DNA of 64,000 nucleotides from Flavobacterium sp. LC2016-23. GTDB taxonomy: Bacteria > Bacteroidota > Bacteroidia > Flavobacteriales > Flavobacteriaceae. Position numbers and translations under genes: made by a program. Each line of letters begins with the position of its first letter. The stretch's first letter is position 1. Location of the stretch: NCBI RefSeq assembly GCF_009674775.1, contig NZ_WKKE01000004.1:186001-250000 (forward strand), read 5' to 3'. A model generated the notes under the pieces. That model had not been told where the DNA came from. It was given only the letters and a program-made list of their open reading frames with translations, and made no database searches. Positions 35,060 to 57,459 of the stretch are shown in pieces.

Positions 35060-35198
35060 AGATGAAGACTGGAAAATTACTAATTGCTTTAATTAGAAAT
35101 GCCTGCGCACTCAATCTATTCCTAAGGGCAAATCTTAATTTGAAATATACTGACTGAATAATTATGTCTTTTGGATAACAATGACCTTTAGTATTTAT
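35060..35198 (-). mobile_element. internally deleted IS6-family remnant fused to nhaA tail
   Basis: The minus strand reads NTKGHCYPKDIIIQSVYFKL then RFALRNRLSAQAFLIKAISN without a stop: the transposase N-terminus joined to a segment from after the second catalytic residue (SAQAFLIKAI). The start codon position is ATA instead of ATG. Its first bases overlap the 3' end of the ctlX gene; the ctlX stop TAA lies inside the IS-derived AATACTAAAGG. Confidence 0.8.
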
Positions 35199-36168
35199 TG
35201 AAATTAACTTTTATTTTTTCGCGTAAAGTACCGGGAGGCCTCGACAAGAAAACTTCAGCCATCATGCATCTGGCGCTTCCGCCTCCGCAAGCTTCGATGG
35301 TATCCAGGCTTGAACTCAAAATTTCACCGTGATTTTCTAATTGTCTAATTTGTTTTGAAGTCAGACTGTGATGTGCCGATGCGCTCATAACGATATATTT
35401 TTTATCATTTTCCCCCCTTACTTCCAACATGTTACCAGCAAAATTTTTGACCTGATCTTCTGTAATTAAAATAACTTCCTTTTTATCAGCTTTTAAATTC
35501 TCCAAAACCATATTACGCTCTTTTTTATCATCAATACAATCTGCACAGATCACTGCAAAAGTTTCCCCTAAACACATCATCACATTAGTGTGATAAATCA
35601 GTTTACGTTCCCCGTCAACAGTTTGAAAAGCTTTAAAAATAACAGGTGCATACTCAAAATCTTCACAAAATTTAATGAATAATTCTTTATCGGCGCGTGG
35701 TGATAATGCGCAGTATGCTTTTGCATTGGCACGATCTAAAAGCAGGCTTCCTGTTCCTTCCAGAAAAAAACCATCTTCTTCAGCCGATGTATAATCTATA
35801 ATAGTAGAAATTTCAAAACCTTTTTCCTGAAGAGTATCTAAAATATCTTCACGACGCTCGCGACGGCGATTTTCAGCAAACATTGGATAAAGAATTACAT
35901 CTCCTTTTTCGTGAAAAGAAACCCAGTTGTTTGGAAAAATACTATCCGGAGTATCCGTTTCCAGCGTATCTTCAATAACTGTTACATCAACTCCTACAGC
36001 TCTTAGTTTTTCAACAAAAGCATCAAACTCCTGCTGTGCTTTTGCATTTACTGTATCTGACAAAAGTCCGTCTAATACTTTTTGATAGTAATTATTTACT
36101 GCCGTCTGCTCATTCATTCTAAAAGCAACCGGACGAATCATTACGATTGCATTTGTTGTTTGTTTCAT
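35188..36168 (-). CDS. ctlX: CtlX-type citrulline/arginine hydrolase (amidinotransferase fold)
   Basis: The 326-residue guanidino-modifying-superfamily protein contains TPDSIFPNNWVSFH, FLEGTGSLLLDR, YHTNVMMCLGE and the C-terminal nucleophile motif ACGGGSARCMMAEVF (Cys ~308). This combination matches the CtlX family, thought to hydrolyse citrulline to ornithine. It is the last gene of the long leftward operon, 79 bp after the arginine deiminase-like gene, the spacer being a GAAACCTGAAAC repeat. In context it would process arginine-derived citrulline from cyanophycin. Its stop codon lies in IS6-derived sequence, so the last residues (NFNKY) may differ from the ancestral end. Confidence 0.82.
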   Translation of the reverse strand: MKQTTNAIVMIRPVAFRMNEQTAVNNYYQKVLDGLLSDTVNAKAQQEFDAFVEKLRAVGVDVTVIEDTLETDTPDSIFPNNWVSFHEKGDVILYPMFAENRRRERREDILDTLQEKGFEISTIIDYTSAEEDGFFLEGTGSLLLDRANAKAYCALSPRADKELFIKFCEDFEYAPVIFKAFQTVDGERKLIYHTNVMMCLGETFAVICADCIDDKKERNMVLENLKADKKEVILITEDQVKNFAGNMLEVRGENDKKYIVMSASAHHSLTSKQIRQLENHGEILSSSLDTIEACGGGSARCMMAEVFLSRPPGTLREKIKVNFNKY

Positions 36169-36247: not shown

Positions 36248-37162
36248 TTAGTCTCTAATTAATGGCAAAGTGGAACATCTTAGCAAACCTTCTTGTTTGG
36301 CAATTTCTGCATATGGAATTTCTTCTACAGTAAAACCATTGACCCGAAGCCAATTGTTCAGACGCGTAAAATTTTTCTCGGAAACAACTACATTTTCATC
36401 AATCGAAAAGACATTCGAAAACATATGGTACATTTCTTCTCTCTCAATATGAAACAGATTTTCTTTTCCAAAAAGATTTACCAGATACAAATAATCAGCT
36501 TCCTCGCGAAAACCTCTTTTATAAATAATTCCTTTATCTTTTCCTACTGGCTGAAAACAGCAATCTAAATGCAAAGCATTATCTCTGGCTTCTAATTTAG
36601 ATTTTACCAAATCAAATTCTTTGACAATTTTATGAGGAAACAATTCTCTAATATACCTCACTCCATGCATATTAGTCCGGGCAGTAATGTAATCTTTATA
36701 ATCGCTTCCTTTATACGTTCCGATAAAAATATGATCATTCCAGAGCATTACGTCTCCTCCTTCAATATGAACTTCTTCTGGCGGACGAACCACTTTTGTT
36801 GCATCCATCTGGTCAATTACATATTGAATGGCATCCAGTTCTCTTTCTCGGTCCGGTAAAATATTAGATTTCACAAAAGTATCATCAATAACAAAACCAA
36901 TATCCCTAGCGAAAATCTGATTGTAGTTTTCTATCGATTCGGGGCGATAAACAGTTATATCATACTTTTGAAACACAGCATTAAAAGCTGCCATCTCAGC
37001 AACCATATCTTTTTCAATCGGATAGGTTCCTGCTTTAATATGTTCCAATGATTTGGGATCGTAGGCTTCATCAACAGATGGAGTCGGCCCATTATGAACG
37101 GCTGTGCCCAAAACTACGGCACGTAATCTTGACGTTTCGTTCTTTATATTTAATTGCAACAT
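36248..37162 (-). CDS. arginine deiminase/dimethylarginine hydrolase-family protein
   Basis: I start at the ATG 37162 (MLQLNIKNETSRLRAVVLG); the 32 residues upstream in frame are basic and lack homology. The 304-residue protein shows the guanidino-hydrolase landmarks: FARDIGFVI, HIEGGDVMLW, the catalytic His in DNALHLDCCF and the nucleophile Cys in GLLRCSTLPL at the C-terminus. It probably acts on arginine (to citrulline) or a related guanidino compound. It is co-transcribed with ctlX; both genes would dispose of the arginine released by the isoaspartyl dipeptidase. Exact substrate not proven. Confidence 0.78.
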   Translation of the reverse strand: MLQLNIKNETSRLRAVVLGTAVHNGPTPSVDEAYDPKSLEHIKAGTYPIEKDMVAEMAAFNAVFQKYDITVYRPESIENYNQIFARDIGFVIDDTFVKSNILPDRERELDAIQYVIDQMDATKVVRPPEEVHIEGGDVMLWNDHIFIGTYKGSDYKDYITARTNMHGVRYIRELFPHKIVKEFDLVKSKLEARDNALHLDCCFQPVGKDKGIIYKRGFREEADYLYLVNLFGKENLFHIEREEMYHMFSNVFSIDENVVVSEKNFTRLNNWLRVNGFTVEEIPYAEIAKQEGLLRCSTLPLIRD

Positions 37163-37260
37163 AACGCTATTATATTTTGAAGGTAAAAATGATTTCTTCT
37201 TAATTTTATTCCTACTTGGTTTTTTAGTGCTTGCTCTAAAAAACATTCCCTTCTGCATCT

Positions 37261-38313
37261 TTACTCTTTCAATTTACCGTTTTCTACAAACCATTTTTTC
37301 CAGATACCTCCTTTTCCGTCCTTCCAATTATTCAAATTGAATGTATTACTTCCTGTACTGGTTCCTTTAATTTCATACACATTAATTGCAGCTTGACCCT
37401 GGTTCCACTCCAATGGATTATTTGGTTTAAAAATTTCTGGCTTATTATCTGGAATTTCCGAATTTGGCACTATAAAATAGGCGGCATCTTGCTTTGAGGG
37501 ATAATTACCAAAGACTCTTGCGATTCCTTTTTCGTCTATACATACCGATGTATATTCATCACAAGCAATTCCTTTTGCCTGAACTTTATAATCATTTATA
37601 ATTCGGGCTAAAAAAGTCACATGTCTTCCCTTTCTATCAGGATTATCATAATGTGTATCGGTAATTACATCTTTTAATATGGTATTATCTAAAAATAAAT
37701 CATTTGATACTGTAATTTTAGTATCAAAAGGATTCAGTAATGCTTCTTGGGAAGTTATCGTCCCGTTTTGAGCCGAAAAATAAAAACCTCCCTGAATAGC
37801 CATACCGGCACTGGTTCCTCCAACAACTGCCTTTCTGTTGGTGATAGCTTTATTAATTGCTTCAGAAATTGGAGTGTTTCTCCAATACGAAATATATTCC
37901 CATTGATCTCCCCCTGCAAACCAAATCGCCTCTGCATTATTTATTTTCTCCAGTATATACTTATCTGACTTCGCTTCAGCATTCTTAAAGACAATCGTTT
38001 CAACAGAATTAACGGCAATACCCAGAGAAGTATATAAATAAGAATTATAACCATCAGATCCAGAAGTTCTTAATATCAAAATATCTCCGCCATCTGCCCT
38101 TTGCAAAAACCATTTCATTGCCTCATCATTTTCAGTGGCTCCTCCCATTAAGCAGATTCCGCCTTGTGGGAAAGTAATTTTATCTACTTTATTTCCTGTA
38201 AAATAGGACATGTAGTTTTTCACTACTGGTGTTTTTGGAACTGAATTTTCCGGGCTGTTTTCAGAAGAGCATGCGCTTAAAATCAACAGAAAAGTTATCG
38301 TTAGTGTTTTCAT
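37261..38313 (-). CDS. cyanophycinase-like lipoprotein (peptidase S51)
   Basis: The lipoprotein signal has Cys at residue 15 (LILSACSSEN). The S51 fold shows the nucleophile elbow GGTSAGM (Ser168), AGGDQ (~134-138) and the histidine motif DTHYDNPDRKGRH (~218-230). Cyanophycinases cut the poly-Asp backbone of cyanophycin to give beta-Asp-Arg dipeptides. This protein and the T9SS enzyme at 46686 share the DTHY-(D/N)-NPDR subtype. It would act at the periplasmic or surface membrane. It lies 12 bp after the YfcC transporter and 98 bp before the arginine deiminase-like gene. Confidence 0.85.
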   Translation of the reverse strand: MKTLTITFLLILSACSSENSPENSVPKTPVVKNYMSYFTGNKVDKITFPQGGICLMGGATENDEAMKWFLQRADGGDILILRTSGSDGYNSYLYTSLGIAVNSVETIVFKNAEAKSDKYILEKINNAEAIWFAGGDQWEYISYWRNTPISEAINKAITNRKAVVGGTSAGMAIQGGFYFSAQNGTITSQEALLNPFDTKITVSNDLFLDNTILKDVITDTHYDNPDRKGRHVTFLARIINDYKVQAKGIACDEYTSVCIDEKGIARVFGNYPSKQDAAYFIVPNSEIPDNKPEIFKPNNPLEWNQGQAAINVYEIKGTSTGSNTFNLNNWKDGKGGIWKKWFVENGKLKE

Positions 38314-38325
38314 TTGAGTTTGATT

Positions 38326-39714
38326 TTACCAATTAAATAAATATAAAGGCGGAAGAATCAGCAACATGGATGCTATTAAAAACACCAACATTCTAGGCAG
38401 CATCCATTTAAACCACTTACTGTAGGGTATCTTAGCCAAAGAAAGTGCTCCCATGGTAACGCCGCTTGTTGGAATGATAAGATTAGTAAAGCCATCACCC
38501 AATTGAAAAGTAAGGACTGCCATTTGTCTGCTTATTTCTGATGCATCACAAATTGGAATAATAATAGGCATCGTTAAAGAAGCTTGTCCTGATCCTGAAG
38601 GAATAAAAAAGTTTAAAAACGATTGGAAAAAAAAGATACATTCAGCAGAAATAGCCTTCGGCGTGTCCTGCGTTATTGATACAATGGAATTAAGTATAGT
38701 ATCAATAATTTTGCCTTCCTGTGTAATAATTAAAAGTCCTTTAGCTAGTCCAATTACCAAAGCTGCAGTCATCATATCTTTAGCTCCGCAGACAAAAGCA
38801 TCTATAGCTTTCGACATAGACATTCTATAAATAATGGAAACAAAAATGGCTAAGGCTAAAAATAAAGCCGCAATTTCGTTTATATACCAATCATAATTAC
38901 TTACCCCATAAATTAATATGATAATTGAAGCAAAAAGCGCATATAAAATTATTTTCCTTGCGCCGTTCAGTTTAAAATCTGACACCTCAACATTGCTTTT
39001 CTCTTTTTCATCAATACTACCAAATAATAGACTTTTCTCAGGATTTTTTTGAATTTTTATTGCATAATGCGTAATTACAACGCAAGCACAAGTTGTTAAA
39101 ACAAACCAGACAAAAATCCTGTATTCCATTCCGCTAAAAATTGGAATTTGTGCAATACCTTGCGCAATACCTATAGTAAACGGGTTACTAAAGGCTCCTC
39201 CAAAACCTACACCAGTACCAACAATTGGAATAGCGGCACCAACAATTGCATCATAACCCATTGCTTTTGCCATGGGCACCGTAATTAAAATAAAGATTAA
39301 AATCTCTTCGCTCATTCCAAAAGTAGCACCGGCAAAAGAAAATAATATAATTAAAAAAGGAATAATGAAAATTTTATGTTTTGGTTTTTTTTGACTAAAC
39401 ACAATTACATTAAAAAGTCCGGCATTTATGGCGCCTGTCAGATTTATGATGGAAAAAGCTCCTCCGACTAAAAAGACAAAAGCAATAATTTGCGATGCCG
39501 AAATAAAACCTTTAATCGGAGCTTCTAAAAAAGCTTTAATTCCCTGAGGAGATGCTTCAACATGTTTGTACGAACCTGCAATAATTTTCTCAGTATTGTT
39601 TCCCTGTAGCCTGTCAAATTCTCCTGCAGGAATAACCCAGGTTAAACCAATAAAAAGAATAGTGATCACTAAAATAATAGTGATTGTATCTGGAAATTTT
39701 TGTAGTAGTTTCAT
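38326..39714 (-). CDS. YfcC-family transporter
   Basis: The 462-residue protein has about 12 membrane helices. The opening PDTITIILVITILFIGLTWV with the PAGEF motif, then GATFGMSEEILIF and IPSGSGQASLTMPIIIPICD, place it in the YfcC/DcuC-like ion transporter group, whose members carry basic amino acids, peptides or dicarboxylates. Between two cyanophycinase genes (6-12 bp spacings), it is the best candidate for moving beta-Asp-Arg or free arginine across the inner membrane. The family is clear; the substrate is inferred. Confidence 0.8.
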   Translation of the reverse strand: MKLLQKFPDTITIILVITILFIGLTWVIPAGEFDRLQGNNTEKIIAGSYKHVEASPQGIKAFLEAPIKGFISASQIIAFVFLVGGAFSIINLTGAINAGLFNVIVFSQKKPKHKIFIIPFLIILFSFAGATFGMSEEILIFILITVPMAKAMGYDAIVGAAIPIVGTGVGFGGAFSNPFTIGIAQGIAQIPIFSGMEYRIFVWFVLTTCACVVITHYAIKIQKNPEKSLLFGSIDEKEKSNVEVSDFKLNGARKIILYALFASIIILIYGVSNYDWYINEIAALFLALAIFVSIIYRMSMSKAIDAFVCGAKDMMTAALVIGLAKGLLIITQEGKIIDTILNSIVSITQDTPKAISAECIFFFQSFLNFFIPSGSGQASLTMPIIIPICDASEISRQMAVLTFQLGDGFTNLIIPTSGVTMGALSLAKIPYSKWFKWMLPRMLVFLIASMLLILPPLYLFNW

Positions 39715-39720: not shown

Positions 39721-40614
39721 TTAAAGTTTAAATTTTTCTCCGGGCAGAAGAATGTCTATAAGAATATTTTCACCGCCCAAAAGACCATTTTTTGTTTTAA
39801 CACTATTTTTATTCGGGTTTTTTAAAATGATAACTTGTGATTCTCCAGCGACTACTGCCGAGTCACCATGAACAATTATGGCAGTTGATTCATTAATCCC
39901 AATTGCTTTTTTATCAGGATGCTCTAAGACAACTGAAAGCAGTCTGTTCATTCTCATTCTGTAAATAAAGTGCTGATCTATTATTGCAGAGGGCATTAGT
40001 CCAAGTCCTTCTTTAATCTCAAAATTTTCTGATTCAATAGTTCGAAAGTTACCGCTGTACTGAGAATGTTTATACTCAATACCTGTTATCATTTCACGGC
40101 TCATTACAGCAGCACCAGCACTAGTTCCGGCAATTGTTGCACCATTTAGGTATGCGGTGTGTATGGCATCGTATGCCGGTGTGTGAAGAATTTGGGACAT
40201 AAATAAATTTTGGTCACCGCCGGTAATGTAAACTAAAGATGCTTTTTTTATAGAATCAATCTGATAAATGCTTTGTTGCTCTTTTTTTAAATTGAATGTT
40301 TTTATTTTATCAGGATTGACTTGTACTTCAACAAAACTTTTTTTAGCATAGTATGACGCAGAGTCTGGCTCCTCACTTGCCATTGGAAGTATTACAATAA
40401 AATCGTCATTTTTTAAATTACTGGTGCTTATTAATTCCTCAATAAGTGATTTTGATATTTTACCGCCTCCCATTATAAATAACGTTCCTTTGGCTGTATT
40501 TTTTACAATTTTGCCTGCGGGTAAATTTTCTTGCCTGACCGAAGTATTTTGTTTTGATTTGCACGATAAACTTATGAGTAAAATTATCATTGCTAATGGT
40601 TTGAAAGTTTTCAT
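39721..40614 (-). CDS. cyanophycinase (CphB-like) lipoprotein
   Basis: The 297-residue lipoprotein (Cys18 in SLSCKS) has the classic CphB layout: GTLFIMGGGKIS, TGGDQNLF (~131-138), the catalytic serine in IAGTSAGAAV (Ser165) and DQHFIYRMRMNRL (~213-225), the His motif of bacterial cyanophycinases. It differs in that last motif from the other two enzymes of the locus, so two cyanophycinase subfamilies are combined. It begins 9 bp after the isoaspartyl dipeptidase stop, which implies co-transcription and a handover of products from one enzyme to the other. Confidence 0.87.
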   Translation of the reverse strand: MKTFKPLAMIILLISLSCKSKQNTSVRQENLPAGKIVKNTAKGTLFIMGGGKISKSLIEELISTSNLKNDDFIVILPMASEEPDSASYYAKKSFVEVQVNPDKIKTFNLKKEQQSIYQIDSIKKASLVYITGGDQNLFMSQILHTPAYDAIHTAYLNGATIAGTSAGAAVMSREMITGIEYKHSQYSGNFRTIESENFEIKEGLGLMPSAIIDQHFIYRMRMNRLLSVVLEHPDKKAIGINESTAIIVHGDSAVVAGESQVIILKNPNKNSVKTKNGLLGGENILIDILLPGEKFKL

Positions 40615-40623: not shown

Positions 40624-41577
40624 TTAATTTTTTTCTTCCAGATCCCAAATAAAAACTTTCTTCTCACTATTTTTCTCACTAACGTAACCCCGATACATTC
40701 CTTCAGAGTTATAAGAAAAATTAACATTTCCATCCTTGTCAATTGCTATAAGCCCTCCTTCTCCTCCCAGCTGTGTCAAATGTCCTTTGATGGTTGTTTC
40801 AGTTGCCTGCTCCAAAGACATTTTTCCAAATTCCATTAAATTTGAAACCATTGAAGCGACTGTGGCTCTGATAAAATATTCTCCAACGCCTGTACATGAT
40901 ACGCCACAAGTTTTATTATTGGCATAAGTACCAGCTCCAATAATTGCAGAGTCACCAATACGTCCGTCCAATTTGTTGGTCATTCCTCCAGTCGAAGTTG
41001 CGGCAGCTATATTGCCATTTCTGTCAAGAGCAACAGCACCAACAGTTCCCATCTTTAAATTAGAATGATCCAGAAAAGTTGCTGTTTCAGAAATTTTTTT
41101 CGCCTCCAAAAATTGTTCTTTTCTAAAATCAGTGTCAAAGTAATTGTTTTCCACTAATTCATGATTAGTTTGTTCTGCCAAATTATCAGCAGCTTCACCA
41201 GATATCATTATAAGTTCTTTATTTTCCAGTAAGCTTTTGGCAAATAAAACAGGGTTTTTAATTTTCATACTGTTCGCTACTGCCCCGGCCTCTAAAGTAG
41301 CACCATCCATTATTGACGCTTCCAGCAAATGCTTGCCTTCCCGGGAATAAACGGCTCCCTTTCCTGCATTAAAATGAATACTGTTCTCCAGAACTACAAC
41401 TGCAGCTGTAACCGCATCAACGGCATTACCGCCTTCTGCTAAAATTGCTTCTCCTGCATTAAGAGCAAGAATTAAGTCTTCTTTTATTTTCTTTTTATCT
41501 GCTTGTGATAGATTCTCAGGCGTTATTACACCCGCGCCTCCATGTATACAAAGTGCAAATGGTATTTTATTTATCAT
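40624..41577 (-). CDS. iaaA: isoaspartyl dipeptidase / plant-type L-asparaginase
   Basis: The 317-residue Ntn-hydrolase has the IHGGAG start and NAGKGAVYSREG. The autocleavage site is MGTVGAVA, whose Thr178 becomes the N-terminal nucleophile, and TSTGG and SCTGVGE follow downstream. These enzymes hydrolyse beta-aspartyl dipeptides; some family members cleave beta-Asp-Arg, the end product of cyanophycinase. It has no signal peptide, so the dipeptide is probably split in the cytoplasm, yielding Asp and Arg. It follows SusD by 101 bp and precedes the CphB-like gene by 9 bp. Confidence 0.9.
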   Translation of the reverse strand: MINKIPFALCIHGGAGVITPENLSQADKKKIKEDLILALNAGEAILAEGGNAVDAVTAAVVVLENSIHFNAGKGAVYSREGKHLLEASIMDGATLEAGAVANSMKIKNPVLFAKSLLENKELIMISGEAADNLAEQTNHELVENNYFDTDFRKEQFLEAKKISETATFLDHSNLKMGTVGAVALDRNGNIAAATSTGGMTNKLDGRIGDSAIIGAGTYANNKTCGVSCTGVGEYFIRATVASMVSNLMEFGKMSLEQATETTIKGHLTQLGGEGGLIAIDKDGNVNFSYNSEGMYRGYVSEKNSEKKVFIWDLEEKN

Positions 41578-41678: not shown

Positions 41679-43028
41679 TTAATATCCTGGATTTTGTTCT
41701 AATTTGCCACGCGCAATCGTAATTTCATTTTGTGGGATCGGATAGGTTGTTCTAAAAGCAGGAATATTTAAAATTGAGGATGCCTTTCCTAATCGAACCA
41801 TCGTAAACCACTGATGTCCTTCAAAGCCCAATTCCCTTTTATTTTCTTCAATCAGAACATTAACAAAAGCATCTGGATTTGGAATATCCGCCAAAGTGTA
41901 AGGTTTGGCAGGCAGTGCTCTTTGACGCACCACATTTAAATCAGCCAAAGCCAAAGTTAAATCTTGGGGATTTTTTTTGGCTAATGCCTCTGCGCGAATT
42001 AGATAGATTTCTGAAAGTTTAATGATAATTGCGTTTCCATCTATTTCGCTGTCACGGGTTCCGTATTTATCGCAATACACTTCTTTTCCTGAATCGTAAT
42101 ATTTATAGCTTCTTGGGTCATTGTCATCGTCCATGGCTTTGAAAAAATTACTATAGTCAGCTGAAACCTCCGGAGGCGAAACGGATAAATACTCCGTTAA
42201 ACTATTACCGTCAATTCCTAAAAACTGTAATTCTAATATTGCTTCTGCCGAACCTTCAACATCATAAATATCATTAAATTTTGTGTTTAATTTATACGTA
42301 GTGTTGCTAATTACTTTACTGGCGTACAATATAGCGTTATCATAATCACCTTGATATAAATAAACCCTTGCCAGCAAAGCTTCAGCTGCCGCTTTTGTAA
42401 TGAAAAATCTATTACTGTCATATTTTAAAATTGCGATTGCTTCTTTTAAATCTGAAATAATCTGCTGATAAGACTGAGCAACAGTAGATCTGGAAACTTC
42501 AGTAGCCGATTTTGCATCCAAATATGTAGTTGAAACAGGAATTCCATATTTTGAGTTCAGATCTGTAAATTGTCCAAATTGACGCAATGCATCAAAATGG
42601 CCTAATGCCCTGCAAAAAAGTGCCGTACCTTTAGCATTATCATCATTTAGCTGAAGCTCTTTCATTTTTAGCAAAATTAAATTACTCGCATTAACAAGTG
42701 AATAAACATTTACCCAATTGCTTTGAATATAAGCATTTGATGGCGGAACAATGGCATTATCCAACTGCACAAAACGTTCCTGAAAGCCTGTTGCATCAGC
42801 ATTACCGCCTGTTAATTCCTGTGCCAATATGAATTCACCACCATAGTACGTGCCGCTTTGCATCAGATCATATAACCCCACAGCGGCGGCTTTTAATGAA
42901 ATATTATCAGTTATTGCAGTTTCCGCCGGTATTTCATCATCTAATTTCGTGTCCAATACATCGTCACATCCTAAAACTGTAAAGGCAAGCAACATAGACA
43001 AGAATAAATATATCTTTTTATTTTTCAT
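41679..43028 (-). CDS. SusD/RagB-family lipoprotein of the cyanophycin locus
   Basis: The 449-residue lipoprotein (Cys at 21, TVLGCDDVLD) has SusD TPR repeats and the usual ending (FEGHQWFTMVRLGKAS, then YPIPQNEI). It starts 11 bp after the SusC stop. SusD-like lids usually bind glycans, but RagB of Porphyromonas binds peptides, so a peptide ligand is possible. Here the neighbours are all peptide and arginine enzymes and no glycosidase is present. A cyanophycin fragment is therefore the expected ligand (inference). Confidence 0.9.
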   Translation of the reverse strand: MKNKKIYLFLSMLLAFTVLGCDDVLDTKLDDEIPAETAITDNISLKAAAVGLYDLMQSGTYYGGEFILAQELTGGNADATGFQERFVQLDNAIVPPSNAYIQSNWVNVYSLVNASNLILLKMKELQLNDDNAKGTALFCRALGHFDALRQFGQFTDLNSKYGIPVSTTYLDAKSATEVSRSTVAQSYQQIISDLKEAIAILKYDSNRFFITKAAAEALLARVYLYQGDYDNAILYASKVISNTTYKLNTKFNDIYDVEGSAEAILELQFLGIDGNSLTEYLSVSPPEVSADYSNFFKAMDDDNDPRSYKYYDSGKEVYCDKYGTRDSEIDGNAIIIKLSEIYLIRAEALAKKNPQDLTLALADLNVVRQRALPAKPYTLADIPNPDAFVNVLIEENKRELGFEGHQWFTMVRLGKASSILNIPAFRTTYPIPQNEITIARGKLEQNPGY

Positions 43029-43039: not shown

Positions 43040-46000
43040 TTAAAATGTTGTACTTAATCCTAATGTAAAGGTGCGCGCCTGACCTAAAGTGCCAAAATCT
43101 TCCCCTTGCATGCTATTCAAATCTTGCTGACTCGAGGTATTTGTAGAAACCTCAGGATCAAAACCTAAATAATCTGTGATGGTAAATAAATTTTGGGCTT
43201 GCAGGTAAAGAGAAAGATTAGTCAACCCCATTTTGCGAATGACATTAGAAGGCAATTTATAAGCAAGACTTAAAGTTTTCAATCGTATGTAATCACCATC
43301 TTCCAAAAACTGAGTGCTAAAACGCTGCATTTGTCCATCTTTTGTAGATGGTCTTGGTACGTCAGTAATTTGGCCTGGCGTTCTCCAATAATTATCATAT
43401 ACTCTTTCGCTTATATTAGAATAGGGTATACCGCTTTTTGTATAACCATAATTGTCATAAACATGTCGGCTTTGATTGAATATTTTATTTCCTCCGGAGA
43501 ATACGAAGTTTGCTGTCAGGGTAAATCCTTTGTAAGTAAAATTATTGCTCCATCCGCCAAAATAAGTGGGTAATGCGCCACCAACAATCTGCCTGTCTGA
43601 GAAATCAATAATTCCATCCTTATTCACGTCATCAAATTTTGCATCTCCGGTTTGCGGATCCACACCCAAGAATTTAATTAAATATAAAGTACTAACCTCC
43701 TGTCCTTCTTTAAGAATATGATTTCTTCCTACTTCTTCTCCGTCATTGATTAATTTTTTAATCTTATTGTCAAGCAACGTTAAATTTACTCCTGTATTCC
43801 ATTTAAAATCGTTTCCATCAAAGACAGCAGCATTAATTCCAAATTCAAATCCTTTATTTTCTATGGCTCCAACATTTTGATAAACAGAATTAAAGCCTGT
43901 AAGTCCCGAAACTTTAGCCTGCAATAAAAGGTCATCTGTCTGTTTGTTGAAATAATCAGCCGTAAAATTGATTCGGTTTTTAAACAATCCAAAATCTAAA
44001 CCAATATCGAGTTGTTTTGTTTTTTCCCAGCCCAGGTCCGGATTTTCTAATCGATTAGGGGCTATTCCGGGAACTCCGTTATAATTAGCATTCAAAGTAT
44101 AAGTTCCTCTCCAGTTTGAACCAATTTCCTGATTTCCTGTTAGTCCGTAACTGGCTCTGATTTTAAGATCAGAAATGCTTTCAATTTTAAAGAATTTCTC
44201 TTTGTTGATTCTCCACGCCAATGATCCTGACGGAAAATAACCGTATTGATTGTTCTCTCCAAAACGGGAAGAACCATCAGCTCTCACCGTAAATGATGCA
44301 ATATATTTATCATCGTAAACATAGTTTGCTCTCGCGAAAAAAGACTGCAAACCGTATTGATTTCTACCCGAAGTACTGGCAATAATTGTACTTGCTGCTG
44401 AAATACTGGATGTTGTGTTGGTAGCATATCCTACGCCGGACTGGTCTGAAAAACGAGTTTCATTTTCTTGTATTGTCCAGCCTAAAATACCTCCGAAATT
44501 ATGCTTTTCGCCAAATTGTTTATTGTAGTTTAAAGTATTTTCAACAAGCCAGTTGGTTTCCTCATAGGTCGCAAAAATACCTTCACCTGTTTTAGATTTA
44601 TTTGTGCCTGACGGAACGTAAGAATCCTCAACTAAGTTGGAATACTCCAATGAAAAAGCAGACTTGAATTTTAAATCCGGAATAATTTTCCATTCAACAT
44701 ATGCTGTCCCCTGTACACGTGTAGACTGAGAGGTGTTTTTATATTCTCTGGCAATCTGAACAGGGTTCTCAAGGGGCCACCAGGTATTGTATTTAAAGGG
44801 GTTGGTATAATTCCCCTTGTCATCATAAATGGGTTCTGTAGGATCCCAGCCCTGTGCATTAATGACAACTCCATATTCATCGTTTTCTCCAATTGTTCGC
44901 TGATGATTGCTTCGCGTTATAAAAAAAGTGTTTCCAATTTTAAATTTTTCATTAATAGTATGATCAAGATTCATACGGGCACTCAATCTCTTAAAGCCTT
45001 GCCCCAATTGAATTCCTTCCTGATTATAATAATTCCCGCTTAAATAATAACTTGTTTTTTCACTTCCTCCCTTAACGCTAAGGTCCAGATTTTGTGTTAT
45101 ACCAACTCTGAAAATTTCATCATAAATATTGGTATTGATTCCTTTTGAAGTATCAATCCAGTCAAAATAATCGGAACCCAGTCCATCAAATTCAGCAGCG
45201 GTATTAAAAAAACTTTTAAACTTGTCGCTATCCACCATTTTTGGATATTTTGAAATTTGAGCAAAAGAAGTGTAATAATTAACATCCACTATACTTGCGC
45301 CTGTTTTACCTCTTTTTGTGGTAATTAAGATTACTCCGTTGGCCCCCCTTGATCCATAGATAGCAGCAGCGGCAGCATCCTTTAAGATTGTAAAAGATTC
45401 GATATCATTTGGACTCAAATCCGCCAAGGGATTAACTGGCTGTATATTCGCATTCAATGCTGAATTATTTCGAGATACTATCGGAATTCCGTCCACTATA
45501 TAGAGTGGCTGACTACTGGCTGAAATAGAAGAGACACCACGAATATTGACACTCACCGCACTTCCTGGCGTAGCCGATGATGAACTTATGTTCACCCCGG
45601 GAGTTTGTCCCTGCAGACTGTTTTCAAAACTTGAAGAGGTTCCCTGAGGCAAATCTTTTGTTTTTATAGATTGCAGACTCGAACTTACATCCTTTTTAGA
45701 TTGCGTTCCATAACCAATAATTACCACTTCATCCAGACTTTGACCCTGACCTGATGCCATAAAAATGGTATAATCGGATTTTCCGTCCAGCGTCACTTTT
45801 TGTGTCTGAAATCCGATATAAGAAAGTTCTATTGAAGTGCTGTTTTCAGGTACCTGAAGTTGAAATTTTCCGTCAAAATCAGTCACTGTACTTACTTTTG
45901 AATTAGGAACAATAACATTGACTCCTACCATGGGTATATTGGATTGCTTGTCTGTAACAGTTCCCTTTATAGTTTTTTGTGCGTATGTTGAAATACATGA

Positions 46001-46042
46001 CAACAACACAATAATTAGTTTTATTTTATTGTTTAGTTTCAT
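43040..46042 (-). CDS. SusC/RagA TonB-dependent transporter of the cyanophycin locus
   Basis: The 1000-residue protein has a signal peptide (ISTYAQ), a carboxypeptidase-D-like domain (TIKGTVTDKQSNIPMVGVNV), the SusC box SLDEVVIIGYGTQSKKDV, a plug (PLYIVDGIPI ... AAAAAIYGSRGANGVILITT split here) and a barrel ending LGLSTTF. With its SusD partner it should import oligopeptides released by the secreted cyanophycinase. The mRNA starts about 370 nt upstream and carries two leader ORFs that also precede the cyanophycinase gene at 46686. Confidence 0.93.
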   Translation of the reverse strand: MKLNNKIKLIIVLLSCISTYAQKTIKGTVTDKQSNIPMVGVNVIVPNSKVSTVTDFDGKFQLQVPENSTSIELSYIGFQTQKVTLDGKSDYTIFMASGQGQSLDEVVIIGYGTQSKKDVSSSLQSIKTKDLPQGTSSSFENSLQGQTPGVNISSSSATPGSAVSVNIRGVSSISASSQPLYIVDGIPIVSRNNSALNANIQPVNPLADLSPNDIESFTILKDAAAAAIYGSRGANGVILITTKRGKTGASIVDVNYYTSFAQISKYPKMVDSDKFKSFFNTAAEFDGLGSDYFDWIDTSKGINTNIYDEIFRVGITQNLDLSVKGGSEKTSYYLSGNYYNQEGIQLGQGFKRLSARMNLDHTINEKFKIGNTFFITRSNHQRTIGENDEYGVVINAQGWDPTEPIYDDKGNYTNPFKYNTWWPLENPVQIAREYKNTSQSTRVQGTAYVEWKIIPDLKFKSAFSLEYSNLVEDSYVPSGTNKSKTGEGIFATYEETNWLVENTLNYNKQFGEKHNFGGILGWTIQENETRFSDQSGVGYATNTTSSISAASTIIASTSGRNQYGLQSFFARANYVYDDKYIASFTVRADGSSRFGENNQYGYFPSGSLAWRINKEKFFKIESISDLKIRASYGLTGNQEIGSNWRGTYTLNANYNGVPGIAPNRLENPDLGWEKTKQLDIGLDFGLFKNRINFTADYFNKQTDDLLLQAKVSGLTGFNSVYQNVGAIENKGFEFGINAAVFDGNDFKWNTGVNLTLLDNKIKKLINDGEEVGRNHILKEGQEVSTLYLIKFLGVDPQTGDAKFDDVNKDGIIDFSDRQIVGGALPTYFGGWSNNFTYKGFTLTANFVFSGGNKIFNQSRHVYDNYGYTKSGIPYSNISERVYDNYWRTPGQITDVPRPSTKDGQMQRFSTQFLEDGDYIRLKTLSLAYKLPSNVIRKMGLTNLSLYLQAQNLFTITDYLGFDPEVSTNTSSQQDLNSMQGEDFGTLGQARTFTLGLSTTF

Positions 46043-46146
46043 TTTCCTGATTTAAAATTTAATAAAATTGACAATAGAAATACCTTAACTATTCATGAAA
46101 ATGAAGCGTTTTGGCATAAAAATCTGTAAACTGAGAAGGGAAACTT

Positions 46147-46230
46147 TTAACAATTAAATATTGGCTGCAAACCTTTTAGATAAAGTGATTTGCAATCAAT
46201 ACATCGGTTTGATAAATTGGTAAAATTCAT
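46147..46230 (-). CDS. 27-residue leader microprotein A1 upstream of SusC
   Basis: The minus strand from ATG 46230 reads 27 codons ending CIDCKSLYLKGLQPIFNC and TAA. The same ORF with the same length, start and C-terminus exists at 48976-49059. The two share MN-x-x-NL at the start and 18 identical C-terminal residues, with differences in that part only at synonymous positions (CTA/TTG, GGT/GGA, TTT/TTC). No Shine-Dalgarno is visible, as is common in Bacteroidetes. It lies about 105 bp before the SusC start. It could be a regulatory leader peptide or a small protein; no known family comes to mind. Confidence 0.7.
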   Translation of the reverse strand: MNFTNLSNRCIDCKSLYLKGLQPIFNC

Positions 46231-46311
46231 TTGGTTTGGTTTGGTTGAGAAGATAAAAAAATACAATAATGATACAGACACTCAGGAATGGTGTTTAAAT
46301 ATCAATTTTAT

Positions 46312-46392
46312 TCAGCAATTAAAGATAGGCTGAAGACCTCTTAAAGTAAGAGATTTTGTTTTTGAGATTGTATTTGCTTTTCGTGTAATCAA
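46312..46392 (-). CDS. 26-residue leader microprotein B1 upstream of SusC
   Basis: The frame ends KTKSLTLRGLQPIFNC-TGA. No ATG is in frame; the TTG at 46390-46392 is conserved with copy B2 (49222-49224) and gives 26 residues in both. It lies ~20 nt after the predicted transcription start and ~80 bp before A1. The C-terminal 14 residues match those of A1 except T for Y and R for K, although 8 of the 10 variable codons differ only silently. As RNA, the same bases fold into an 8-bp stem with a CUU loop, so an RNA element cannot be excluded. Confidence 0.6.
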   Translation of the reverse strand: MITRKANTISKTKSLTLRGLQPIFNC

Positions 46393-46415
46393 AATAGATT
46401 GATTTTATTTGATGC

Positions 46416-46423
46416 TAAAAGTA
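46416..46423 (-). promoter_or_regulatory. SusC promoter -7 element TACTTTTA
   Basis: Minus-strand TACTTTTA in the same context as the perfect TACTTTTG at 49244; a TTTTAG lies near the -33 position. Confidence 0.5.
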
Positions 46424-46685
46424 GAAAAAAAAATGAACTAAAAAATAAAAATCACAATTTTTATTATACTTTATTTATACTTTTAGTTTTTAAATTGATA
46501 TTTCTTTATCATTTTATGATTTCAATTAAATAAAATAAACACACACTTTACAAAGTTGTAATATTAGGAAGCATATTCATTTTAAAATAGCCTCCTAATA
46601 TTAATTACTTATGTCTGGCACAAATAAAAAACTATAAAATGTATTGATTGCCATTACCTGCAAAATACTTTAAAAAACAAAAAAA

Positions 46686-48734
46686 TTAATTTGATATTAT
46701 AAATTTAGAGCGTTTTACGACTTTGTCACCCCTTTTGACAGAAAGCAAGTATTGACCTGCTTTTAAATCTGAAACGTTTATATCTATGCTATTCTGACCT
46801 AAGTCCCCATGAGTAATGATTGTTTTTACAAGCGAAGCATTCAGATCATAAATAGATACATGAATATCCTCTTTTTCTGCCAATGCAAAATCAATTTTAA
46901 GAAAATCTACAGCCGGATTTGGGTAAATTACTATTGCAGTATTAGTCTCTTCTATATTTTTAATTTCCTTAAATTTTGCAGTTCCGCCTGAAACATTCAG
47001 TGTATAATCTTCTGTTTCGCCATAAGTATAGGTACCGCAAGAAGATGTAATTGAATTATAACTTACTATGATTCGCATTCTTATATTTCCACTAACGGCT
47101 GATGTCGGTATTGTAATCTGCGGTGTTAAAGTAGAGCTGCTGAAAACAGAATATACCTCTTCTCCCGAATCCGTAAATACACCATTATTATTTAAATCTA
47201 TAAATACTTTCCAGTATAACTTTCTTGTTGCGCTAAATCCGGGTGTTAAGGTCAAAGTCGTTGCGGTCCCTTTAGAGATAGTAGCAACCTGCGAAGAAAA
47301 ATCAGCATAACCTCCATTTGAATTACTTAAATTACTAATACTTCCAATTGCTACTTTTTTGATCCATTCTCTACTGGAATCACTTCCTGCGGAAGAACAA
47401 TAGGTCACTGTGCCGCCCCCGCCAGAAGCTGTGGTGAAGTTTATCGATGCTGCAATAGAAGAGCCACTAGTGCAATTACCATAAACTTCGACATTGTATA
47501 AAGTGTTCGCATTTAAACTTGTCAGATTTGCAGAAGTTACTGTTGAAGCAGCAAGTGTTATCCAGGTAGAGGAACTATTTGCCTTATATTTCACCGTATA
47601 ATCTGTTGCTGTTGTACCGGTCCAACTAAGGATTGCAGAATTTGTTGTTATGCTGCCTGCCGTTACGTTTGCAGGTGCGGGGCAGCTTGATGGTGCGGCA
47701 CCTACTGTTTCTGTCAAAGTTCCATTAATTACTTTAATCACACCGTAAGTTGCTTTAGATCCGGAAACTGTCGTCCAGTCGTTTAAATTTAGTGTAGTGG
47801 ACCCAGTAGTATCCCCTTCAATTTTGATGATGCGTACTCCTTTTCCGCTATTGTTCCAGGTTAAAGCAGCCCCTGAAGCTACAGTTTCTGGTATCGAACT
47901 GGTATCAAACTGATAAAAATAGGCATAGTTTGCGCTTGCAGGAGCAAAAACCTTAGCAATACCATTCTGATCAATACAAACTGCTGTTTTTTCGTAAACT
48001 CCAATTCCTTTTGCATTCAATCCGGCACCTAAATCTTTCCACATTCTGGCAATAAAAGCTGTTTGCCTGCCTCTGCGGTCCGGATTATTATAATGAGTAT
48101 CAGTAATTACATTAGCCAGTATCGCATTGTTTACAAAATCATTTGCTCCGATCGTCATATCTGAGTTATAAGGATTAGCCAGGGCCTGAGCTGAGGTAAC
48201 ACTTGCATTTGCAGCACTATAATAATATTTACCCTGAATAGCACATCCGGCGCTAGTTCCTCCAACAGGTACTTTCTTTGTATTTATAAGATAATTTATG
48301 GCATCTTCTACCGGAGTATCTTTCCAATATGAGACATAAGTGGCCTGATCTCCACCTGCAATAAATAAAGCTTCAGCATTTCTAATTTTGGTTGCAATTT
48401 CTGCAATACTGGCCTTTGCTCTGGTATCAATTAGAATTGTTTCTACAGAATTTACCGTTCCCAATCCATAGATATAATCATTATAAGCTCCTGTACCTGC
48501 AGATCTAATGACAACAAAATCTCCACCACCAGATTTTTGTATCATCCATTTTATTGCATCATCATTATCTGTTCCACCTCCCATTAAACATGTACCGCCT
48601 GTAGTCGTGGTGTTAACATCCGAAGTACTTCCTGTTATCCAGCTCGTGTAAGTTTGTGAGTATGTAAAATTTATTGTGAAGAGAAAAAATAATATAATCA
48701 AATGATTCTTCCTGATATTGTAAATATTTTTCAT
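46686..48734 (-). CDS. T9SS-secreted multidomain cyanophycinase
   Basis: The 682-residue protein has a signal peptide (INFTYSQ), a cyanophycinase domain (about 30-345; AGGDQ ~127-131, nucleophile GGTSAGC with Ser161, DTHYNNPDRRGRQ) and a fibronectin type III domain (about 355-435). A GEVED-type beta domain follows (about 445-580, FIDLNNNGVFTDSGEEVYS and TYGETEDYTLNVSG), then a T9SS type A sorting signal (VIYPNPAVDFLKIDF ... KFIISN). It is thus a secreted or surface enzyme able to attack insoluble cyanophycin granules. It has its own promoter at 49244 and the same tandem leader ORFs as the SusC operon. Confidence 0.92.
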   Translation of the reverse strand: MKNIYNIRKNHLIILFFLFTINFTYSQTYTSWITGSTSDVNTTTTGGTCLMGGGTDNDDAIKWMIQKSGGGDFVVIRSAGTGAYNDYIYGLGTVNSVETILIDTRAKASIAEIATKIRNAEALFIAGGDQATYVSYWKDTPVEDAINYLINTKKVPVGGTSAGCAIQGKYYYSAANASVTSAQALANPYNSDMTIGANDFVNNAILANVITDTHYNNPDRRGRQTAFIARMWKDLGAGLNAKGIGVYEKTAVCIDQNGIAKVFAPASANYAYFYQFDTSSIPETVASGAALTWNNSGKGVRIIKIEGDTTGSTTLNLNDWTTVSGSKATYGVIKVINGTLTETVGAAPSSCPAPANVTAGSITTNSAILSWTGTTATDYTVKYKANSSSTWITLAASTVTSANLTSLNANTLYNVEVYGNCTSGSSIAASINFTTASGGGGTVTYCSSAGSDSSREWIKKVAIGSISNLSNSNGGYADFSSQVATISKGTATTLTLTPGFSATRKLYWKVFIDLNNNGVFTDSGEEVYSVFSSSTLTPQITIPTSAVSGNIRMRIIVSYNSITSSCGTYTYGETEDYTLNVSGGTAKFKEIKNIEETNTAIVIYPNPAVDFLKIDFALAEKEDIHVSIYDLNASLVKTIITHGDLGQNSIDINVSDLKAGQYLLSVKRGDKVVKRSKFIISN

Positions 48735-48975
48735 AATATGTTTTTTGTTTAATGTTAAAATTTAAAAATTAACAATAGTGCTCCAATCGCAAATCAATTT
48801 TGTAAAATGCACAAAACATAGTACAACAATCAATACACGATTTTAAATACCATTGAAAATTATATTTCAATCTTTTAAAATTTAATAAAATGGAATATTA
48901 GTTTTCAATACAATTTCTAAAGCAGAAAGCAGAAATTAAAATATTGAAAGCTTTAAACTATGAAGAAGGTTATTT

Positions 48976-49059
48976 TCAACAATTGAATATTGGCTGCAAT
49001 CCTTTCAAATAAAGTGATTTGCAATCAATACAAACGAGAGCTAAGTTATTATAGTTCAT
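48976..49059 (-). CDS. 27-residue leader microprotein A2 upstream of the cyanophycinase
   Basis: The ATG at 49057-49059 opens 27 codons ending CIDCKSLYLKGLQPIFNC-TGA, the counterpart of A1. The 5' flank TTCTCAACCA-x-AAA before the ATG is shared with A1. It lies ~240 bp before the cyanophycinase start. Confidence 0.7.
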   Translation of the reverse strand: MNYNNLALVCIDCKSLYLKGLQPIFNC

Positions 49060-49143
49060 TTTTTGTGGTTGAGAAAATTAAAAATAAAATAACTAAATGT
49101 AAAACGAGAAGCTTTTAAACAAGCAAAGTTTCGCATAATTTCT

Positions 49144-49224
49144 TCAACAATTAAAAATAGGCTGAAGACCTCTTAAAGTAAGAGATTTAGTTTTTAAAAT
49201 TTTATTTATTTTCCTAGAAATCAA
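49144..49224 (-). CDS. 26-residue leader microprotein B2 upstream of the cyanophycinase
   Basis: Counterpart of B1: conserved TTG start (MI-[TS]-RK-x-N-x-I-x-KTKSLTLRGLQPIFNC). The start lies about 13 nt after the predicted transcription start and ~85 bp before A2, reproducing the B-then-A order of the SusC leader. Confidence 0.6.
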   Translation of the reverse strand: MISRKINKILKTKSLTLRGLQPIFNC

Positions 49225-49243
49225 AGCAGTAGATTTATTTTAT

Positions 49244-49273
49244 CAAAAGTATAAAAAAAAATGATTCAACAAA
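49244..49273 (-). promoter_or_regulatory. cyanophycinase promoter TTTG-N18-TACTTTTG
   Basis: Minus-strand TTTG (plus 49270-49273) and TACTTTTG (plus 49244-49251) are 18 bp apart. The predicted leader is ~500 nt and contains both microprotein ORFs. Confidence 0.75.
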
Positions 49274-57457: not shown

Positions 57458-57459
57458 AT

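What the first reader, a model, noticed from the sequence alone, without database searches (positions are those of the whole stretch)
46147..49224. Two pairs of conserved microproteins ending in GLQPIFNC precede both cyanophycin transcripts
Upstream of SusC (46312-46392, 46147-46230) and of the cyanophycinase (49144-49224, 48976-49059), the mRNA leader carries the same two ORFs in the same order, 26 and 27 codons, at the same spacing. All four end KSL-[TY]-L-[RK]-GLQPIFNC-stop. Across the four copies most codon differences are synonymous (TCA/TCT, CTA/TTG/TTA, TTG/CTT, CCA/CCT, ATA/ATC/ATT, TGT/TGC), the mark of selection on the peptide. No dedicated regulator gene lies in the locus. Inference: translated leader peptides that control expression (for example by ribosome arrest near Q-P-I-F-N-C), or a new small-protein family.
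Basis: seen in the sequence. Interest (0 to 1): 0.93.

Follow-up and report, generated by a model that had tools for sequence, protein, structure and literature searches.

The report
Ribosome-stalling leader peptides for cyanophycin genes
Flavobacterium and some of its relatives carry tiny genes just ahead of their genes for eating the nitrogen polymer cyanophycin, and the peptides they encode end in nearly the same eight letters; the ribosome is likely to pause at the end of these peptides and would thereby switch the feeding genes on when cyanophycin breakdown products are present.

Summary
Four short ORFs, in two pairs, precede the secreted cyanophycinase and SusC; all end GLQPIFNC-stop. 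They are the only such sites found in the 5.4-Mb genome. A scan of one genome for each of 84,980 species gave 28 matching stretches: 25 lead into cyanophycin loci, one is an orphan beside such a locus, one ends at a contig edge, one is chance. Hosts: Flavobacterium, Tamlana, Robertkochia, Schleiferia, Flammeovirga and a Cytophagales MAG. Over 62 copies L, Q, P and F are invariant while codons vary; pN/pS is 0.06 in frame against 1.4 and 3.3 in the other frames (copies had been chosen by this core). uORF1 starts with TTG in 26 of 26, behind a predicted promoter box in 23; uORF2 starts with ATG in all 23 visible. RNA folds after the stops differ between lineages; the peptide end hardly does.

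Best reading: cis-acting leader peptides that likely arrest the ribosome at their stop codon in response to a cyanophycin product, as TnaC or SpeFL do with theirs. Arrest, ligand and switch are inferred. No Rfam match; no held paper prints GLQPIFNC.

The parts
49244..49251 (-). Predicted -7 promoter box TACTTTTG before the secreted-cyanophycinase leader; predicted transcription start near 49239
   Evidence: Sequence; matches TAnnTTTG at -12 to -5 described for F. psychrophilum (PMC9723704 section 15 part 1). TAnnTTT[GA] at this place in 23 of 26 uORF1 leaders against a shuffle mean of 1.3. Start site not measured.
49144..49224 (-). uORF1 of the cyanophycinase leader, MISRKINKILKTKSLTLRGLQPIFNC, TTG start
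49097..49136 (-). Weak AT-rich hairpin after uORF1 (not better than shuffles in this copy, z -0.27)
48976..49059 (-). uORF2 of the cyanophycinase leader, MNYNNLALVCIDCKSLYLKGLQPIFNC, ATG start
48903..48949 (-). Predicted hairpin after uORF2 (z -1.39)
46686..48734 (-). Secreted cyanophycinase (peptidase S51 domain, GEVED, type IX secretion tail); cyanophycinase model matched below its cut-off
   Evidence: Pfam, NCBIfam
46416..46423 (-). Predicted -7 promoter box TACTTTTA (one base off the consensus) before the SusC leader; predicted start near 46411
46312..46392 (-). uORF1 of the SusC leader, MITRKANTISKTKSLTLRGLQPIFNC, TTG start
46270..46304 (-). Hairpin after uORF1 of the SusC leader (TGATAT...GTATCA outer stem, ACAC...GTGT inner stem), 5' arm from the 8th nt past the stop codon, then U-rich
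   Evidence: z -1.83, p 0.055; mean z -1.92 over 23 spacers
46147..46230 (-). uORF2 of the SusC leader, MNFTNLSNRCIDCKSLYLKGLQPIFNC, ATG start
46080..46117 (-). Hairpin after uORF2 of the SusC leader (ATGCC...GGTAT outer, TTCAT...ATGAA inner); in the window copy alone not better than shuffles (z -0.29)
   Evidence: alignment of 11 sequences, z -3.75
43040..46042 (-). SusC/RagA outer-membrane transporter without an STN signalling domain
41679..43028 (-). SusD-like lipoprotein
40624..41577 (-). Isoaspartyl (beta-aspartyl) dipeptidase, Asparaginase_2 family (NCBIfam beta-aspartyl-peptidase model below its cut-off)
39721..40614 (-). Cyanophycinase (above NCBIfam cut-off)
38326..39714 (-). DcuC/YfcC-family transporter (YfcC model below its cut-off)
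37261..38313 (-). Second S51-family peptidase (cyanophycinase model, below cut-off)
36248..37258 (-). Arginine deiminase-like protein (below NCBIfam cut-offs)
35188..36168 (-). Citrulline utilization hydrolase CtlX (above cut-off)

Best explanation
The four ORFs are copies of one leader-peptide family, conserved in peptide and not in codons, that sits ahead of cyanophycin-feeding genes and is likely translated, with the ribosome predicted to arrest at the stop codon when a cyanophycin breakdown product is present, which would let expression run on into the genes. Shown: position, peptide-level selection, TTG and ATG starts, repetition ahead of different genes, near restriction to cyanophycin loci. 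Inferred: the C-terminal [RK]GLQPIFNC sits next to the peptidyl transferase centre, with the residues back to K-[SP]-L in the upper exit tunnel, and blocks release of the finished peptide when a small molecule is bound; the best candidate is the beta-Asp-Arg dipeptide, otherwise arginine, because the enzyme that splits beta-Asp-Arg is the common partner. Inferred: in Flavobacterium a ribosome held at the uORF1 stop would cover the 5' arm of the hairpin that begins a few nucleotides downstream. In Flammeovirga the part after the stop differs: three copies (L105, L042, L049) can form a stem whose 5' arm starts in the stop codon itself, two (L038, L040) fold hardly at all, and there a held ribosome could shield the RNA from Rho. 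Two uORFs in series would act as two successive gates.
For: Rarity and linkage: 4 sites in the genome; 25 of 28 exact-pattern stretches lead into cyanophycin loci, 1 orphan, 1 contig edge, 1 chance; 22 of the 23 genomes tested hold a cyanophycinase-family match at E 1e-5 or better. Family sample: 10 of 11 matches, 5 of 6 genomes. Peptide selection: with the stop as -1, L-8, Q-7, P-6 and F-4 are invariant in 62 of 62; pN/pS 0.059 in frame, 1.38 and 3.34 out of frame. Cis action: own copy ahead of each of 4 consecutive genes in L107; a leader pair 42 nt behind the preceding gene and without a promoter box in L022 and L041. Translation signals: TTG in 26 of 26 uORF1 (27 codons back in 24, 25 in 2, stop counted); TAnnTTT[GA] 27-35 nt upstream in 23 of 26, shuffles mean 1.3, highest 6. 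Not codon sampling: adjacent Arg codons in 0 of 26 uORF1, 0 of 24 uORF2, 1 of 12 single leaders. Expression platform: hairpin after uORF1, mean z -1.92 over 23 spacers; C exceeds G in the first 40 nt after the last stop in 20 of 24, against 36 of 91 control windows; Rho gene present.
Against: No ribosome, RNA or expression data exist here. The copies were collected by similarity to the core, so its conservation is partly built in; codons -15 to -10, not selected for, show weaker constraint (pN/pS 0.40). Many copies are from close relatives, so counts and mean z values are not independent. No intrinsic terminator-like site was found on the leader strand. In the window itself three of the four post-uORF folds are weak (z -0.27, -1.39, -0.29; the fourth -1.83), and single leaders outside the paired group show no structure signal (mean z -0.39, n 12). 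The rest of the leaders is also G-poor (C above G in 16 of 24), so the C-rich stretch is not sharply placed. Not every cyanophycin-type locus has the motif: 15 distant CphB loci, 3 of them with SusC plus isoaspartyl dipeptidase, lack it. No ligand evidence.
Confidence: 0.66

Rival explanations
1. Starvation-type attenuator: ribosomes sample particular codons (Arg, Asp or Cys) and pause when that tRNA is uncharged, switching an RNA fold.
For: Short translated leaders with hairpins after the stop are the classical layout; 61 of 62 uORFs end on a Cys codon, uORF2 holds 2-3 Cys codons, and 25 of 26 uORF1 hold one or two Arg codons. Leader-peptide attenuation upstream of amino-acid biosynthesis operons is reported in F. 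psychrophilum (PMC9723704 passage).
Against: No runs of Arg codons (adjacent Arg in 1 of 62; uORF2 has no Arg in 13 of 24); Asp 0 in 24 of 26 uORF1. The operon is catabolic, so induction by shortage of its own product would be backwards. Invariant L, Q, P, F are not explained by one sampled amino acid.
Confidence: 0.09
2. The peptides are products in their own right: a secreted signal, a modified peptide, or a small protein acting in trans.
For: The C-terminal eight residues, ending in Cys, are strongly conserved.
Against: Copies are repeated in front of different genes of one locus, the last 59-244 nt before the gene, which a trans-acting product would not need; N-termini are poorly conserved and no modification or export gene was recognised in the cluster. 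An orphan copy away from its gene has a decayed second frame (L098).
Confidence: 0.1
3. A structured RNA element (riboswitch-like) is the sensor and the reading frame is incidental.
For: Codon choice mildly favours a hairpin inside the uORFs (mean z -1.11, -1.22, -1.04 against synonymous versions); hairpins follow the uORFs in Flavobacterium.
Against: pN/pS 0.059 in frame, above 1 in both other frames. Folds differ between uORF1, uORF2 and distant lineages while the peptide end stays. No Rfam family matches even at E 1.
Confidence: 0.06
4. Ligand-independent arrest or slow termination that reports something else, such as general translation or the secretion state, or simply sets a low basal level.
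For: TTG start of uORF1 suggests weak initiation; nothing in the sequence names a ligand.
Against: The tie to one nutrient pathway over several families argues for a pathway-specific signal; no export signal is evident in the uORFs, judged by eye only.
Confidence: 0.09

Closest known systems
TnaC (E. coli tryptophanase leader peptide)
   Same: Short leader ORF of similar length (24 residues) before a catabolic operon; there the ribosome is held with the stop codon in the A site and shields a rut site just downstream (PMC8429421, passages). Here too conservation runs up to the stop, and the stretch after the last stop is richer in C than in G in 20 of 24.
   Different: TnaC was not compared with these peptides; two ORFs in series in the Flavobacteriaceae susC and cyanophycinase leaders; all three stop codons are used (39 TGA, 19 TAA, 4 TAG); stalling and ligand not shown.
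SpeFL / orf34 (ornithine-sensing leader, gamma-proteobacteria)
   Same: Leader ORF in the arginine-ornithine area of metabolism that interferes with Rho-dependent termination (PMC6386406 abstract; PMC8429421 passages).
   Different: orf34 has two adjacent Arg codons that matter (PMC6386406 abstract); here 1 of 62 copies has adjacent Arg codons. Different phylum and gene set; sequences not compared.
ErmBL with ErmBL2 (two leader peptides before ermB)
   Same: Two leader peptides before one gene (PMC8274638, title and start of abstract in the listing).
   Different: The ermB leaders respond to erythromycin; here both uORFs share one C-terminal motif and precede nutrient genes.
ECF sigma / FecR / STN-SusC signalling
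   Same: A way for Bacteroidota to switch SusCD nutrient loci on (recalled); its parts are found at motif-free cyanophycinase-type loci L082 and L084.
   Different: The window's SusC has no STN domain and no FecR or sigma gene was found among the neighbours scanned.

Membership tests
Metabolite-sensing arrest leader peptides (TnaC/SpeFL kind) | Short ORF in the leader of the regulated transcript | tested here: met
   last uORF 59-244 nt before the first gene where that gene is seen; transcript inferred from promoter boxes
Metabolite-sensing arrest leader peptides (TnaC/SpeFL kind) | Peptide-level conservation concentrated at the C-terminus up to the stop codon | tested here: met
   pN/pS 0.059 over the last 8 sense codons, 0.40 over the six before; ascertainment by the core noted
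Metabolite-sensing arrest leader peptides (TnaC/SpeFL kind) | Downstream switch (terminator hairpin or rut site) within reach of the held ribosome | tested here: inconclusive
   Hairpins mean z -1.92, C above G after the stop in 20 of 24, but no terminator-like site on this strand and no structure signal in single leaders
Metabolite-sensing arrest leader peptides (TnaC/SpeFL kind) | Ribosome held at the final codon | not testable with these tools
   Needs toeprinting or ribosome profiling
Metabolite-sensing arrest leader peptides (TnaC/SpeFL kind) | Arrest depends on a pathway metabolite | not testable with these tools
   Ligand inferred from gene content only
Metabolite-sensing arrest leader peptides (TnaC/SpeFL kind) | Sequence kinship with TnaC or SpeFL | not tested
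   Neither peptide was compared residue by residue
Amino-acid starvation attenuators (trp/his kind) | Run of codons for the regulated amino acid | tested here: not met
   Adjacent Arg codons in 0 of 26 uORF1, 0 of 24 uORF2, 1 of 12 single leaders; Asp 0 in 24 and 1 in 2 of 26 uORF1
Known Rfam regulatory RNAs | Match to a covariance model | tested here: not met
   Gathering scan of the window: only a tRNA; E up to 1 over 45950-49750: none
ECF/FecR/STN-SusC regulated loci | STN domain on SusC with FecR and ECF sigma genes beside it | tested here: not met
   Window SusC has no STN; no FecR or sigma gene among the neighbours scanned

The most novel reading that the evidence does not exclude
A new class of ribosome-borne metabolite sensor: a nascent peptide ending [GN]LQP[IV]F[ND][CN] that recognises the beta-Asp-Arg dipeptide, the first dipeptide ligand for an arrest peptide, used in tandem as a two-gate switch, and the first case in which a SusCD nutrient-uptake locus is switched by the ribosome instead of by an envelope sigma/anti-sigma relay, with a conserved peptide sensor plugged into different downstream switches in different families.
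Probability: 0.25. Interest if true: 0.88.

Novelty: new variant of a known kind. Interest (0 to 1): 0.76.

Why it matters
Few natural nascent peptides that sense a small metabolite are known (recalled), and each teaches how the exit tunnel reads a ligand. This family is short, comes in 49 distinct 15-codon ends over several genera, and has a small set of candidate ligands, so it can be tested directly by toeprinting. It would also add a ribosome-level switch to the regulation of SusCD nutrient loci in Bacteroidota, and give a sequence tag for one group of cyanophycin-feeding operons in genomes and metagenomes.

Tried and rejected
Riboswitch or known RNA family: no Rfam match. Intrinsic terminator in the window's leaders: the one site listed is on the + strand. 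General susC leader: not supported; a different kind of CphB-like locus in 15 Flavobacterium genomes (L060-L074; one of them, G054, also has the leader at another locus) shows no isoaspartyl dipeptidase hit and no copy with 6 or more of 8 core residues; one 5-of-8 frame in L070 ends LQPPFNF, about 3 kb from the cyanophycinase-like gene. The core pattern at two mismatches at phylum level (395 genomes): 6 matches outside the known ones against 1 for the reversed pattern, judged chance after reading their surroundings. Relatives among predicted proteins: no candidate for one 44-residue reading of uORF2; uORF1 was not searched there. A possible distant leader in L087 (short frame ending LKLHHPISIINCY before a hairpin): none of the 16 other genomes of its genus gave a match, so left open. 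Alignment-level fold of the spacer after uORF1: seen only in the SusC class and weak in energy (-1.3), absent in the cyanophycinase class; single-sequence folds were used instead.

Limits of counts: one search was given 23 of the 24 genomes (Flavobacterium sp. KJJ not given); its weakest best match is 2.3e-6. Of the 27 genomes with a CphB match, 15 outside Flavobacteriaceae were fetched, G413 was fetched, two carry the leader (G000, G063) and 9 were not read. Dropped from the 62 copies: second sightings of the same genome, the chance match L047, the decayed second frame in L098, and frames with fewer than 6 of 8 core residues. Searches used chosen subsets (46, 24, 23 and 34). Last-uORF distances are and leave out L026 and L037, where no gene lies in the locus, and the orphan.
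Full report
What is there. The window lies in a 5.39-Mb genome of the genus Flavobacterium: same-genus genomes G006 and G054 have contigs of the same length as those of F. anhuiense and Flavobacterium sp. KJJ. On the - strand it holds a run of genes: secreted cyanophycinase 46686-48734, SusC, SusD, isoaspartyl dipeptidase, cyanophycinase, a YfcC/DcuC transporter, a second S51 peptidase, an arginine deiminase-like protein and a CtlX citrulline hydrolase (Pfam, NCBIfam; only CphB 39721-40614, CtlX and SusC pass their NCBIfam cut-offs). Together they fit a path from cyanophycin through beta-Asp-Arg to Asp, Arg and citrulline; the two-step breakdown is described in PMC10206079 (passages), and the fit is inference. 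In front of the secreted cyanophycinase and of SusC lie the two pairs of ORFs.

Is it more than chance. The pattern for GLQPIFNC-stop with up to two mismatches occurs 4 times in the genome, all here, and 0 times reversed. Among 199 genomes of the 'relatives' set (own genome included) 7 have it at up to one mismatch: 6 of the genus, counting the window's own, and one of the same order. An exact scan of the GTDB genome collection gives 28 stretches from 24 genomes; the viral collection gives 0. In 369 genomes drawn evenly from the family, a relaxed pattern (LQP[IV]F[ND]C-stop) has 11 matches in 6 genomes and 0 reversed; 10 matches in 5 genomes are cyanophycin leaders (window; G063, seen as L044; L078; L079; L101), the eleventh is a 9-codon frame on the far strand of another gene.

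What it precedes. Of the 28 stretches, 25 lead into a cyanophycin gene or its operon: secreted cyanophycinase, SusC, isoaspartyl dipeptidase, another S51 protein, or in Schleiferia a type IX-sorted protein followed by the dipeptidase and an S51 protein (for L037 the gene lies in the adjoining locus L039, for L046 in L099). The other three are an orphan in Flavobacterium sp. Root935 (L023), a leader at a contig edge in Flavobacterium sp. A45 (L026) and a match inside a gene in a Chitinophagaceae MAG (L047). 22 of 23 genomes tested hold a cyanophycinase-family match, the exception being that MAG. Genera: Flavobacterium, Tamlana, Robertkochia, Schleiferia, Flammeovirga, and a Cytophagales MAG (UBA9432); two further unnamed Flavobacteriaceae have it too (L078, L079). 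In the Cytophagales MAG (L107) each of four consecutive genes has its own single copy: secreted cyanophycinase, isoaspartyl dipeptidase, another S51 protein, and a gene cut by the contig end. Whether these are four transcripts is not known.

What it does not precede. In the family sample of 397 genomes, 8 have a CphB relative at E 1e-50 or better. Five carry the uORFs; in the four whose locus was read out (window, L078, L079, L101) the dipeptidase gene lies beside the cyanophycinase. The other three (L080, L081, L082) have neither the uORFs nor a dipeptidase hit in the 18 kb read. L082 was scanned and has an STN-bearing SusC, a FecR and a sigma-type gene; so has L084 from another family; L080 and L081 look alike by eye. 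At phylum level 27 of 395 genomes have a CphB relative at 1e-40; 15 of these, all outside Flavobacteriaceae, were fetched and none has the motif, including 3 with SusC, dipeptidase and cyanophycinase together (L084, L087, L090). L087 has a SusC without STN and still no motif. So the leader marks one group of cyanophycin loci, not all, and the split 'leader or sigma relay' is a tendency from few loci.

Peptide or RNA. Over 62 copies (26 uORF1, 24 uORF2, 12 single; 49 distinct ends), counting the stop as -1, positions -8 L, -7 Q, -6 P and -4 F are invariant; -9 is G in 59 and N in 3, -5 I in 59 and V in 3, -3 N in 57 and D in 5, -2 C in 61 and N in 1; codons vary freely, for example Leu -8 as CTT, TTG, TTA, CTG, CTC and CTA. 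pN/pS over the last 8 sense codons is 0.059 in frame, 1.38 and 3.34 in the other two frames. The copies were selected by that core, so the in-frame value is biased down; the six codons before it, not selected for, give 0.40 against 0.81 and 1.85. Stop codons: 39 TGA, 19 TAA, 4 TAG. Codon choice mildly favours a hairpin within the uORF (mean z -1.11, -1.22 and -1.04 for uORF1, uORF2 and single, over 18, 18 and 10 chosen copies, many of them related), so an RNA role on top of the peptide is not excluded.

Signals for translation. Every uORF1 (26 of 26) has TTG as its only start-like codon 22 to 30 codons back, at 27 in 24 and at 25 in 2; 23 of 26 have TAnnTTT[GA] 27 to 35 nt before the expected start position, against a mean of 1.3 and a highest value of 6 in 200 shuffles; the exact TAnnTTTG is in 5 of 26 against 0.3. 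In F. psychrophilum the main promoter box is TAnnTTTG at -12 to -5 and the median 5' UTR is 24 bp (PMC9723704, section 15 part 1); that places the window's predicted starts 15 and 19 nt before the TTG. The three uORF1 without the box are the SusC-type leaders of the F. taihuense group (L022, L026, L041); in L022 and L041 the pair sits 42 nt behind the end of the cyanophycinase gene, so it would work inside a transcript. uORF2 starts with ATG in the 23 of 24 where the start is in the locus.

What follows the stops. In Flavobacterium a hairpin usually begins within about 20 nt of the uORF1 stop: 23 spacers, mean z -1.92 against dinucleotide shuffles, 13 of 23 at p 0.05 or better, with different arm sequences in different lineages (ACAC/GTGT, ACTC/GAGT), and a U-rich stretch beyond it. 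The window's own values are -0.27 and -1.83, and L078 has hardly any fold. After uORF2 the SusC class has mean z -1.59 (6 of 15 at p 0.05), the cyanophycinase class -1.48 (2 of 7); single leaders elsewhere -0.39 (1 of 12). In 7 related SusC leaders, the window's included, the predicted fold after uORF2 also pairs the stretch just before the SusC start codon (window 46044-46060), so control of SusC translation is as possible as control of transcription. In the first 40 nt after the last stop C exceeds G in 20 of 24, mean C 0.208 and G 0.119, against 0.158 and 0.163 and 36 of 91 in windows before other genes of the same loci; the rest of the leaders is G-poor as well (0.159 and 0.096). A Rho gene is present. 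The pattern is a fixed peptide with a changeable downstream part.

Mechanism. Most likely the C-terminal peptide holds the ribosome at its own stop codon when a cyanophycin product is in the tunnel, and the held ribosome keeps a hairpin or a Rho site from working, so the genes are expressed. Shown: anatomy, selection, linkage. Inferred: translation, arrest, ligand, switch. beta-Asp-Arg is preferred over Arg because an isoaspartyl dipeptidase is found in a locus of every genus examined and because the dipeptide is specific to this food, whereas Arg is always in the cell. The starvation model fits badly with the codon content and with a catabolic operon.

Known work. The held paper library has no text with GLQPIFNC. 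Among the 16 to 20 papers listed by each of the searches on leader peptides with Bacteroidetes, SusC, cyanophycin, TnaC/SpeFL and Rho (up to 397 papers held the terms) I saw no title or abstract start that reports a leader peptide before cyanophycin or susC genes. PMC9723704 reports leader-peptide attenuation signs upstream of amino-acid biosynthesis operons in F. psychrophilum (passage; also passages). The TnaC layout is taken from passages of PMC8429421, orf34/speF from the abstract of PMC6386406, the two ermB leaders from the title and start of the abstract of PMC8274638 in a listing. A TonB-dependent transporter beside a cyanophycinase gene was noted earlier in a marine Citromicrobium (PMC3400609 passage).

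Noticed in passing
L098:1960-2212 (+), Flavobacterium sp. Root935: Orphan third leader at the far end of the cyanophycin locus, with no cyanophycin gene behind it: uORF1 intact (GLQPIFNC), the second frame decayed to SFYLKALQSIFNY. It resembles the SusC leader of F. circumlabens (L099), so it may be a relic of a lost locus.
   Followed up: partly
L026 (reverse strand) 7490-7956, Flavobacterium sp. A45: The leader pair of the cyanophycinase type runs straight into a uORF1 of the SusC type, 220 nt later, as if the cyanophycinase gene had been lost between them; the contig ends there.
   Followed up: partly
window 46044-46137 (-): The predicted fold after uORF2 pairs the stretch just before the SusC start codon; the same pairing is predicted in 7 of 15 SusC-class leaders, all close relatives.
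   Followed up: partly
L087:6400-6770 (+): Cyanophycin-type locus with an STN-less SusC and no motif, but a short frame ending FCDCPLCMAFLKLHHPISIINCY before a hairpin with U-rich tail; possibly another leader. No match in 16 other genomes of its genus.
   Followed up: partly
L082:7845-12989 (-); L084:4958-10365 (+): Cyanophycinase-type loci without the motif have STN-SusC, FecR and sigma-type genes: a different way of control for similar gene sets.
   Followed up: partly
window 46147-46230, 48976-49059 and relatives: Within uORF2 the Cys-Lys codons can pair with the Leu-Gln codons (TTGCAAA/TTTGCAG), and synonymous choices mildly favour the pairing; may be a second layer of control.
   Followed up: partly
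G001-G120: Many Flavobacterium genomes hold an about 30% identical cyanophycinase-like gene, perhaps the storage type beside a cyanophycin synthetase.
   Followed up: no
window 56363-60678 (-): LodA-like lysine epsilon-oxidase gene beside an FAD-dependent halogenase-like gene.
   Followed up: no
window 36248-38313 (-): The arginine deiminase-like protein and the second S51 peptidase score well below the curated cut-offs of their best NCBIfam models, so their substrates are uncertain.
   Followed up: no
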